From assembly GCA_016212295.1 (NCBI GenBank), contig JACRGO010000221.1, positions 1 through 13,045 on the forward strand: a stretch of DNA of 13,045 nucleotides, written 5' to 3'. Shown one piece after another: positions 11,037 through 13,045 of this stretch; the stretch's first letter is position 1; each line of letters opens with the position of its first letter. Under the pieces are notes generated by a model. That model was given only the letters and a program-made list of their open reading frames with translations. It was not told the origin of the DNA and did not search any database. A program made the translations under genes and the position numbers. The DNA is from Nitrospinota bacterium (GTDB lineage: Bacteria > Nitrospinota > Nitrospinia > JACRGO01).

Positions 11037-12293
11037 TTATGCTGACAGACATCCCGCTTTTTTAAGAAGCCCCAGCCTTTTCCCCTCCATGCGAAAAAGG
11101 ACCCTGATCCCGTTTTCCGTGTATTTTTCCGAAAGTATATGGCCGTGCCTCCGGATCTGTTGCAGGAGAGAGTTTTCACGGTAATCTAGGACCAATTCCC
11201 TTTCCACCATTCTTTCCTCTTGAATTGACGTTATCGTCCGGACCAGTTCCTCGCATCCGTTCCCCTTGGCCGCTGAGATAAAACTGCTGCCCGGAAAACG
11301 CGCCGCGATGTTTTCCACGATGGCGCCAGGGACGCGGTCCACCTTGTTGAACACCCATAAATTAGGCTTGTCCATGACTCCTAGTTCTCCTATGACCCTT
11401 TGCGTGGAGGCCATCTGCGCCTCGAACCTGGGGTGGCTGACGTCGATCATCTTTATGAGGAAGTCCGCCATGCGTACCTCGTCCAGCGTGGCCTTGAACG
11501 AGGCCACGAGGGAGTGGGGAAGCTTGTCGATGAATCCTACCGTATCGGTGATCAGAATTTTTTTTCCGCGGGCTTTTTTAAGGGTCCTGGTGCAGGCGTC
11601 CAGCGTGGCGAAGAGCCGGTCCTCCACGAAGAGGTTGGACATGGTTAGCCGGTTCATGAGCGTGGACTTGCCCACGTTGGTATATCCCACGATGGCCGCC
11701 TTGAAGATCTCGTCCCTGGCCTTTCGCTGGATATGCCTTTCCTTGTCAATGGCTTTAAGTTTGTCCCGCAGCCGGTATATTTCCTGGCGGACGATGCGCC
11801 GGTCGATTTCTAGCTGTTTTTCCCCGACTTCACGGAGTCCTATTCCCCCCCTCTGTCTGGAAAGATGGGACCAGCGTCCGGTAAGGCGTGGAAGCAGGTA
11901 TTCGAGGCGGGCCAGTTGCACCTGGGTCTTGGCCTCGCGGCTGCGGGCGTGCCGGTTGAATATATCAAGGATTAAACCGCACCGGTCAACCACCGCGCAG
12001 TTGAGCGCGTTTTCCAGGTTTCTGCATTGGGCGGGTGAGAGGTCATCATCGAAAATGACAAGGCAGGCATTGGAGCCGGTTTTAAGGGACAGAAGCTCCT
12101 CCACTTTCCCTTCGCCTATGAAGGACCTGGGGTTGATGCGGCCCTTTGCCTGGATTACCTTTCCAGTTATGGAATAACCGGCGGTTTTGGCCAGGCCGGC
12201 CAGTTCCTCCAGGGAATCCTCGATTTCCCATGCCGGCCTCCTGTTTATGGAGACCCCTGCAAGGATGGCGTTATTTTTCTTGGTCGTATCCAA
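11037..12293 (-). CDS. hflX: Ribosome-associated GTPase HflX
   Basis: HflX is a GTPase that binds the 50S subunit and, in studied bacteria, splits stalled ribosomes after stress. The 418 residues have the N-terminal HflX domain (about 8-110, with FIGEGKVEEL and FDDDLSPAQCRNLENAL). A coiled linker with REAKTQVQLARLEYLLPRL (119-137) and RQRGGIGL (146-153) follows, then the GTPase domain. G1 is GYTNVGKST at 203-211, G3 DTVG at 250-253, G4 NKVD at 316-319 and G5 SAAKG at 340-344. The usual GPGE of the linker reads EVGE here (155-158). The TTG start at 12293 has no ribosome binding site, so the exact start is uncertain, though the family N-terminus is accounted for. Upstream is the gene-free repeat region. 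Confidence 0.95.
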   Translation of the reverse strand: MDTTKKNNAILAGVSINRRPAWEIEDSLEELAGLAKTAGYSITGKVIQAKGRINPRSFIGEGKVEELLSLKTGSNACLVIFDDDLSPAQCRNLENALNCAVVDRCGLILDIFNRHARSREAKTQVQLARLEYLLPRLTGRWSHLSRQRGGIGLREVGEKQLEIDRRIVRQEIYRLRDKLKAIDKERHIQRKARDEIFKAAIVGYTNVGKSTLMNRLTMSNLFVEDRLFATLDACTRTLKKARGKKILITDTVGFIDKLPHSLVASFKATLDEVRMADFLIKMIDVSHPRFEAQMASTQRVIGELGVMDKPNLWVFNKVDRVPGAIVENIAARFPGSSFISAAKGNGCEELVRTITSIQEERMVERELVLDYRENSLLQQIRRHGHILSEKYTENGIRVLFRMEGKRLGLLKKAGCLSA

Positions 12294-12479
12294 ATTTTTT
12301 TTTCGTTAGCCCATAGCGCGTCATGGCCGCAAACAAAATAAATTTCGACGCATTCAAACGTTCGATTAAATTATTACTCTCTGTAAACATTATATAACGA
12401 TATAACGCCCAAGGCCATTTGTCCATATTTGTTTGAAACGACAGGCACTATATCATTATGGCATTGAATTTTTTTGATT
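12294..12479. other. Gene-free stretch upstream of hflX
   Basis: I see no coding region or strong structure here. It should contain the hflX promoter. A TATAAT can be read on the minus strand at about 12389-12394, but no -35 hexamer sits at proper spacing, so I do not call a promoter. Confidence 0.5.
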
Positions 12480-12607
12480 TTGCATTAGCGGGGTATCCAC
12501 TTAGAGCAAGTAAGGCCAAAATATCTACAATAGATGGTATCAATAGATAACAACCGAATACAATATATAGTATTAACTTGCGTTAAGTGGATACCCCGCT
12601 TGCATTA
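12480..12607. mobile_element. MITE-like element with 8-bp target duplication
   Basis: The element proper is 12488-12599 (112 bp). Its ends are 16-bp perfect inverted repeats: GCGGGGTATCCACTTA at 12488-12503 and its reverse complement at 12584-12599. The match continues inward for six more bases (GCAAGT at 12506-12511 with ACTTGC at 12576-12581) after two mismatched positions, so each end is about 24 bp. The element is flanked by an exact direct repeat TTGCATTA (12480-12487 and 12600-12607), the signature of a target-site duplication. The interior is A/T-rich and too short for a transposase, so it is non-autonomous. Several insertion-sequence families make 8-bp duplications; I cannot assign one. 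Confidence 0.85.
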
Positions 12608-12689
12608 TATTAATTGCACACTGAGGCTGTGGCGGGCTTCTTATGGGAATTTTGGAGTTGGGATCGCGGATTTAGGATTTTAAAATTTT

Positions 12690-12866
12690 TTCACCGCAAA
12701 GATCATGGAGCGGCTTCGCCGCAACCAAATGGAAGACAAAATTCCAAATGGCAAATAACAAATAAATTCCAAACCACTGCTGAATTTCCAAAATAATTCC
12801 ATTTCCTTGTTTGTTTTTTGTAATTTTGGTTATTGAGATTTATTTGTTATTTGACAATTGAGATTT
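12690..12866. repeat. Composite A/T-rich intergenic inverted repeat
   Basis: A perfect 15-bp inverted pair (CAAATAACAAATAAA at 12752-12766, complement at 12839-12853) lies in a longer imperfect one extending outward to about 12739 and 12866. Repeated ATTCCAAA-type words fill the area. At the left edge is TTCACCGC (12690-12697), shared with the repeat near 1380, then a small stem GCGGC/GCCGC (12710-12722). Repeats with this wording are typical scattered intergenic sequence in many environmental bacterial genomes. The short reading frame at 12614-12796 arises from this repeat and is not called a gene. Confidence 0.6.
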
Positions 12867-12907
12867 TGATTATCATAAAACTTTGCTGAAAAAACAAAGC
12901 GTTATAG

Positions 12908-12954
12908 ATACTTATTCGCCTATTCTGAGAATTTATCTCGCACATTTCATTTCC
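12908..12954 (-). pseudogene. Relic of the tolR 5' end
   Basis: These 47 bases align without gaps to 8162-8208, the start of tolR and its ribosome binding region, with 40 identities (85%). Read on the minus strand from ATG at 12945, it encodes MCEINSQNRRISIY against MREINSQNRRVSVY in TolR. Changes inside the frame are one R-to-C, two V-to-I and silent ones. Similarity then stops abruptly and the conserved transmembrane segment is absent, so it is a fragment rather than a working ExbD/TolR. It may derive from duplication of this tolR or from a lost paralogue. Confidence 0.75.
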
Positions 12955-13045
12955 CGGCAATGAGCCAAAAATATTTGAAATTTCAAAAAGGCGGCAAAAA
13001 GTAAAACGTTTCATGGCAAAAAGAGATAAATTTTCGGAATAGGCG
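12917..13045. repeat. Inverted repeat at the right edge of the window
   Basis: The 23 bases 13023-13045 are the reverse complement of 12917-12939 with two mismatches, separated by 83 bases. The left arm is part of the tolR relic, so the right arm is a second, inverted relic encoding EINFRNR in one plus-strand frame. The match runs to the last base of the window and may continue beyond it. Confidence 0.75.

What the first reader, a model, noticed from the sequence alone, without database searches (positions are those of the whole stretch)
12480..12607. Small non-autonomous transposable element with intact target duplication
Perfect 16-bp terminal inverted repeats (about 24 bp with two mismatches), a 112-bp body and exact TTGCATTA duplications on both sides fit a recently inserted MITE. 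Undecayed ends and duplication suggest recent mobility, which would need a transposase elsewhere in the genome recognising GCGGGGTATCCACTTA ends.
Basis: partly seen in the sequence, partly recalled or inferred. Interest (0 to 1): 0.7.

Follow-up and report, generated by a model that had tools for sequence, protein, structure and literature searches.

The report
Miniature transposon mobilised by IS1595-type transposase
A 112-base stretch of DNA that carries no gene has recently spread to at least four places in this bacterium's genome, and its ends show that it borrows the enzyme of a known kind of jumping gene (the IS1595 family); this is an ordinary sort of element, but its enzyme partner can now be named.

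Summary
Window 12488-12599 is a 112-bp element with perfect 16-bp terminal inverted repeats (22 of 24 matching) and exact TTGCATTA copies on both sides. The reading as a recently mobile MITE is supported: the same genome (a 237-contig assembly) holds four copies that differ by at most one base, three with different exact 8-bp, AT-rich target duplications. A related 256-bp element with its own 8-bp duplication lies on contig C199. I added the missing partner. Elements with such ends occur in Desulfobacterota, Kiritimatiellae, Verrucomicrobia and Latescibacterota MAGs, and insertion sequences with the same ends encode IS1595-family transposases (Zn_ribbon_IS1595 + DDE_Tnp_IS1595). One is complete at 1,045 bp (L129), and two annotated plasmid IS1595 elements with 8-bp duplications share the terminal motif. 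A weight matrix built only from ISs found through their transposases picks exactly the two ends of this element out of the 13-kb window. No IS1595 transposase was found in the binned genome or its congener, so the present source of transposase is unknown; an empty site was not tested. New member of a known kind: an IS1595-family MITE.

The parts
12480..12487 (.). left target-site duplication TTGCATTA
   Evidence: sequence; AT-rich 8-bp duplications also flank the C179 and C125 copies
12488..12599 (+). 112-bp non-autonomous element (MITE), no ORF of 80 aa or more within it
   Evidence: four copies in own genome, 99-100% identical
12488..12511 (+). left terminal inverted repeat GCGGGGTATCCACTTAGAGCAAGT
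   Evidence: second-best match in the window to the weight matrix of IS1595-family IS ends
12576..12599 (-). right terminal inverted repeat GCGGGGTATCCACTTAACGCAAGT
   Evidence: identical over 24/24 bp to the end of an IS1595-family IS in L077; best match in the window to the IS-end weight matrix
12554..12575 (-). subterminal stretch TAATACTATATATTGTATTCGG (TATATATTGT core), similar to the subterminal stretches of IS1595-family IS ends (e.g. CCTATATATTGTGG in L137, ACCACTATATATAGT in L156)
   Evidence: alignment of ends and 46-bp weight matrix
12600..12607 (.). right target-site duplication TTGCATTA
   Evidence: sequence

Best explanation
The element is a MITE: a short stretch with two transposase-binding ends and no gene, moved in trans by a DDE transposase of the IS1595 family (the Zn-ribbon-bearing, about 305-aa type). 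The transposase would bind the roughly 24-46-bp ends, cut them, and insert the element into AT-rich DNA, making an 8-bp (in relatives sometimes 9-bp) staggered duplication. Shown: multi-copy recent dispersal, target duplications, and ends shared with IS1595-family ISs. Inferred: cross-recognition by the transposase, the staggered cut, and where the transposase now is or was (an unassembled IS, a lost one, or one visiting on a mobile element).
For: Four near-identical copies, three with distinct exact 8-bp AT-rich duplications. A related 256-bp element on C199 with duplication TTAAATAT. A pattern made from these two elements found ends in Desulfobacterota, Kiritimatiellae, Verrucomicrobia and Latescibacterota genomes, including complete short elements of 111-379 bp, some with 8-9-bp duplications. 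Such ends lie next to IS1595-family transposase genes in five genomes: L077 (N-terminal part, 38 bp inside the end) and L079 (C-terminal part) of one genome, L131, L132, L137, and L129, a complete 1,045-bp IS with an intact 305-aa ORF. NCBIfam transpos_IS1595 at 1.9e-58 and both Pfam IS1595 domains for L129. Independent control: plasmid ISs found by transposase homology only, annotated IS1595 family (L156, L157), have ends CAGGGCTATGCAGTTGAC and ACGGGGTATCCCCTTAGC and 8-bp duplications; a matrix from those alone ranks the two ends of the window element first and second in the whole window. Literature: IS1595-family members are usually flanked by 8-bp duplications (PMC8101967), and ISEc69 of this family inserts into 8-bp AT-rich targets (PMC7835479).
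Against: No IS1595 transposase was found in the binned genome (90.5% complete) or in the congener, by family model or by protein. No end of this type sits at a contig edge of the own genome, so a broken full-length copy is not visible. The C229 copy has no duplication. In L079 the transposase C-terminus is split over frames. The genome searched is an assembly in pieces, from which repeated ISs easily drop out.
Confidence: 0.9

Rival explanations
1. The element is a MITE, but of another transposase family with 8-bp duplications (for example ISL3 or IS256), and the likeness of the ends to IS1595 elements is coincidental.
For: 8-bp duplications are not unique to IS1595 (general knowledge); the own genome holds two IS256-type fragments (PF00872) and five DDE_Tnp_1 matches.
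Against: No ISL3 transposase in the own genome, and the ISL3 loci of the congener lack these ends. The IS256 and DDE_Tnp_1 loci lack these ends. The IS1595-end weight matrix, built without any window-derived sequence, picks exactly the element's two ends, and one IS1595 end is identical over 24 bp.
Confidence: 0.05
2. The element is a hairpin-type repeat (REP or BIME-like) spread by a REP-associated Y1 transposase, or a structured RNA or terminator element, not a TIR transposon.
For: It folds strongly as RNA (-46.1 kcal/mol, z -8.8); the C179 copy lies 41 bp from a Y1_Tnp gene (PF01797).
Against: Exact 8-bp target duplications in three of four copies; Y1 transposition gives no such duplications (general knowledge). 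Ends shared with DDE-transposase ISs. No Rfam match in 12200-13045. The strong fold is a direct result of the inverted repeats.
Confidence: 0.02
3. A rival on present activity only, compatible with the best explanation of what the element is: the copies are now immobile remains, spread by an IS since lost from the lineage, with no source of transposase left.
For: No IS1595 transposase in the bin or the congener; no such ends at contig edges.
Against: Copies differ by at most one base in 112, so spread was recent; about 9.5% of the genome is missing from the assembly, and repeated ISs are the part most often lost.
Confidence: 0.4

Closest known systems
IS1595 family of insertion sequences (Zn-ribbon + ISXO2-like DDE transposase; e.g. 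the annotated IS1595 elements in L156 and L157)
   Same: terminal motif GGGGTATCC.CTTA at the same distance from the tip, subterminal similarity, 8-bp duplications (AT-rich in L156 as in the MITE copies)
   Different: the window element has no transposase gene and is 112 bp against about 1,000 bp
MITEs of bacterial and archaeal ISs, e.g. MITEPye1 (IS1182-related, PMC11578231) and the archaeal MITEs of PMC3852290
   Same: short, no gene, inverted repeats and duplications, likeness to the partner IS limited to the ends, strong RNA fold
   Different: other IS families as partner; here no partner was found in the bin itself
Merlin DNA transposons of eukaryotes (relatives of IS1016/IS1595)
   Same: 8-9-bp target duplications and a DDE domain shared with IS1595 according to PMC8101967
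   Different: eukaryotic; named only as the wider kin, ends not compared

Membership tests
MITE (miniature inverted-repeat transposable element) | short (under about 500 bp), no transposase gene | tested here: met
   112 bp; no ORF of 80 aa or more within it
MITE (miniature inverted-repeat transposable element) | terminal inverted repeats | tested here: met
   16/16 and 22/24 bp
MITE (miniature inverted-repeat transposable element) | target-site duplications of constant length at different sites | tested here: met
   8 bp, three different sequences, in 3 of 4 copies; the C229 copy has none
MITE (miniature inverted-repeat transposable element) | several dispersed copies in one genome | tested here: met
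   four copies on four contigs
MITE (miniature inverted-repeat transposable element) | empty-site form in a relative | not tested
   the genome searches needed were used for the transposase; no ortholog of the site was examined
IS1595-family partner | ends shared with ISs that encode an IS1595 transposase | tested here: met
   L129 complete IS; L077, L079, L131, L132, L137 partial; plasmid ISs L156, L157
IS1595-family partner | 8-bp AT-rich target duplications | tested here: met
   family property in PMC8101967 and PMC7835479
IS1595-family partner | IS1595 transposase in the same genome | tested here: not met
   no match in G000 by PF12762 or by the L129 protein; assembly 90.5% complete and fragmented. 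This concerns the source of transposase, not the class of the ends, and is not a defining feature of a MITE
IS1595-family partner | movement of the element by an IS1595 transposase | not testable with these tools
   needs a transposition or binding assay
ISL3-family partner (considered) | ISL3 transposase with these ends in the genome or congener | tested here: not met
   none in G000; the two ISL3 loci of G001 lack these ends

The most novel reading that the evidence does not exclude
One kind of IS1595-type end has been kept nearly unchanged (CTGGGGTATGCACTT or GCGGGGTATCCACTT plus a conserved subterminal stretch) across several bacterial phyla, so that MITEs and ISs of distant hosts may be cross-mobilisable: a shared, horizontally usable set of ends whose MITEs can be spread by a visiting transposase even in genomes with no resident partner, such as this one.
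Probability: 0.25. Interest if true: 0.45.

Novelty: new member of a known kind. Interest (0 to 1): 0.27.

Why it matters
It names the transposase partner of an otherwise anonymous repeat and supplies a testable set of ends. IS1595-family MITEs seem little described: the searches of open papers made here found only one paper that holds the terms for MITE, IS1595 and non-autonomous together, and it mentions IS1595 once. The same kind of end occurs in several phyla. The finding is otherwise ordinary genome biology.

Tried and rejected
ISL3 was the first family guess, from a remembered likeness to ISPpu12 ends; rejected. IS256 (PF00872) and DDE_Tnp_1 (PF01609) loci of the own genome carry no such ends. 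Ends in L075 (Dyadobacter) and L084 (Pedobacter) fall inside ordinary protein genes and have no partner end, so they are taken as chance matches and not counted. L091 (Bacillota) has an IS21-like reading frame near the end and was left unresolved. L037, L038 and L045 of the same phylum show single ends with no convincing partner. IS1595 matches elsewhere in the phylum (L139-L153) have no such ends. The exact 16-bp end was not found in viral contigs, and the element has no relative in plasmids. A search for orthologs of the neighbouring hflX gene in genome contigs found nothing.

Full report
Observation. Window 12480-12607 is TTGCATTA, then a 112-bp segment GCGGGGTATCCACTTAGAGCAAGT...ACTTGCGTTAAGTGGATACCCCGC, then TTGCATTA. 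The terminal repeats are perfect over 16 bp and match at 22 of 24. The window is contig C180 of a 3.74-Mb, 237-contig assembly, 90.5% complete.

It is a real, dispersed element. The same 112 bp lies at C229:23481 and C179:7892 without a single difference and at C125:28536 (inverted) with one substitution. Flanks differ entirely. Three copies have exact 8-bp duplications: TTGCATTA, TATAAAAA and TAAAAATA. The C229 copy has none, as can happen after a deletion or recombination next to an element (inference). Identity this high means recent spread. A second, related element on C199 (256 bp, ends CTGGGGTATGCACTTA, 44-bp arms 77% complementary, single copy) has the duplication TTAAATAT. All five lie between the longer reading frames of their contigs; the window copy is 195 bp upstream of the start of an hflX gene (TIGR03156, 1.1e-125).

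Not found in close relatives. Among 59 other genomes of the same phylum no copy of the whole element was found; the only match was a weak 36-bp one in G004. The one congener has neither element nor ends. The element is absent from plasmids, and its exact end from viral contigs.

Partner. A pattern combining the ends of the two local elements (SYGGGGTATSCACTTRNNNNRAGT) gave 20 loci in the genome collection. By my estimate for random DNA of that size about 15 would be expected, so single hits mean little by themselves. What makes many of them real is that they are paired, inverted, 111-379 bp apart, some with 8-9-bp duplications (ATTATGAAA in Desulfoluna limicola, TTTTGCAAT and ATTGCAAAA in a Desulfobacterales MAG, TATAAAAA in a Desulfobulbaceae MAG), and that several genomes have many copies. 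Three contigs of CSMAG_833 break 138-139 bp inside such an end, the mark of a longer repeat. Two hits, in Dyadobacter and Pedobacter, lie inside genes and are set aside as chance.

Two contigs of one genome (L077, L079) carry, just inside such ends, the N-terminal and C-terminal parts of an IS1595-family transposase (family match for L077 and for L079's DDE part). The L077 end is identical to the right end of the window element over 24 of 24 bp. A search of these genomes for DDE_Tnp_IS1595 (PF12762) then gave L129, a complete IS of 1,045 bp with about 45-bp ends ACTGGGTATCCGCTTTACTCAAGTGACCACAACATGTAGTAT and an intact 305-aa transposase (NCBIfam transpos_IS1595 1.9e-58; Pfam Zn_ribbon_IS1595 and DDE_Tnp_IS1595), and L131, L132 and L137, partial ISs each with one such end. 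To guard against circularity I took ISs found by transposase similarity alone in plasmids: annotated IS1595-family elements of Legionella antarctica (L156, 990 bp, duplication TTATTATT) and Enterobacter hormaechei (L157, 1,053 bp, duplication ACGAGAAG) have ends CAGGGCTATGCAGTTGAC... and ACGGGGTATCCCCTTAGC.... Weight matrices made from the independent ISs, or from the two plasmid ISs only, rank positions 12599(-) and 12488(+) first and second (tied at 16 bp) among all of the roughly 26,000 places on both strands of the window, at 16, 24 and 46 bp. The transposases of L131, L132 and four plasmid ISs are 46-53% identical to that of L129.

Mechanism. IS1595-family members are usually flanked by 8-bp duplications and, except for one group, carry a Zn-finger domain in front of the DDE domain (PMC8101967); ISEc69 of this family was shown to insert into AT-rich 8-bp targets (PMC7835479). 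The duplications here are 8 bp and AT-rich. The best reading is therefore trans-mobilisation of a gene-less element by an IS1595-type transposase that binds its 24-46-bp ends. Binding and movement are inferred, not shown.

Source of the transposase. Neither PF12762 nor the L129 protein matches anything in the own genome or its congener, and no such end lies at a contig edge of the own genome. Either the IS is in the missing part of the assembly, or it was lost, or it visits on another replicon. The data do not choose.

Other readings. The strong RNA fold (-46.1 kcal/mol, z -8.8) follows from the inverted repeats; no Rfam family matches, and promoter and terminator scans are at chance level. 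A REP-type origin is disfavoured by the duplications, although one copy lies 41 bp from a Y1_Tnp gene.

Novelty. MITEs are a known kind, and so are IS1595 elements; this is a new member with an assigned family. What may be of wider use is the occurrence of the same ends in several phyla. An empty site was not tested.

Noticed in passing
window 12917-13045: A second inverted-repeat element (23-bp arms, 91% complementary) ends exactly at the contig end; a 94% identical 129-bp copy lies on C70 of the same genome (L094 2703-2829), where the arms extend outward (TACTTACTCGCC...), so the window copy is cut by the contig end.
   Followed up: partly
L034 2863-3852 (G000 C179): A Y1_Tnp (IS200-like, REP-associated type) transposase gene ends 41 bp from one copy of the MITE.
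   Followed up: no
L092 147-338: A viral contig (IMGVR_UViG_3300033181_000010) has a 192-bp element with related ends (GTGGGGTATCCACTTGG / GTGGGGTATCCATCCAA) flanked by AAACCCTGCT on both sides.
   Followed up: no
L072 5145-5283, L073 709-847, L082 6681-6820: Three contigs of Deltaproteobacteria MAG CSMAG_833 stop 138-139 bp inside the same element end, an assembly break at a longer repeat.
   Followed up: partly
window 12752-12767 and 12838-12853: A further perfect 16-bp inverted repeat in A+T-rich intergenic sequence (CAAATAACAAATAAAT), which looks like low-complexity DNA rather than part of the element.
   Followed up: no
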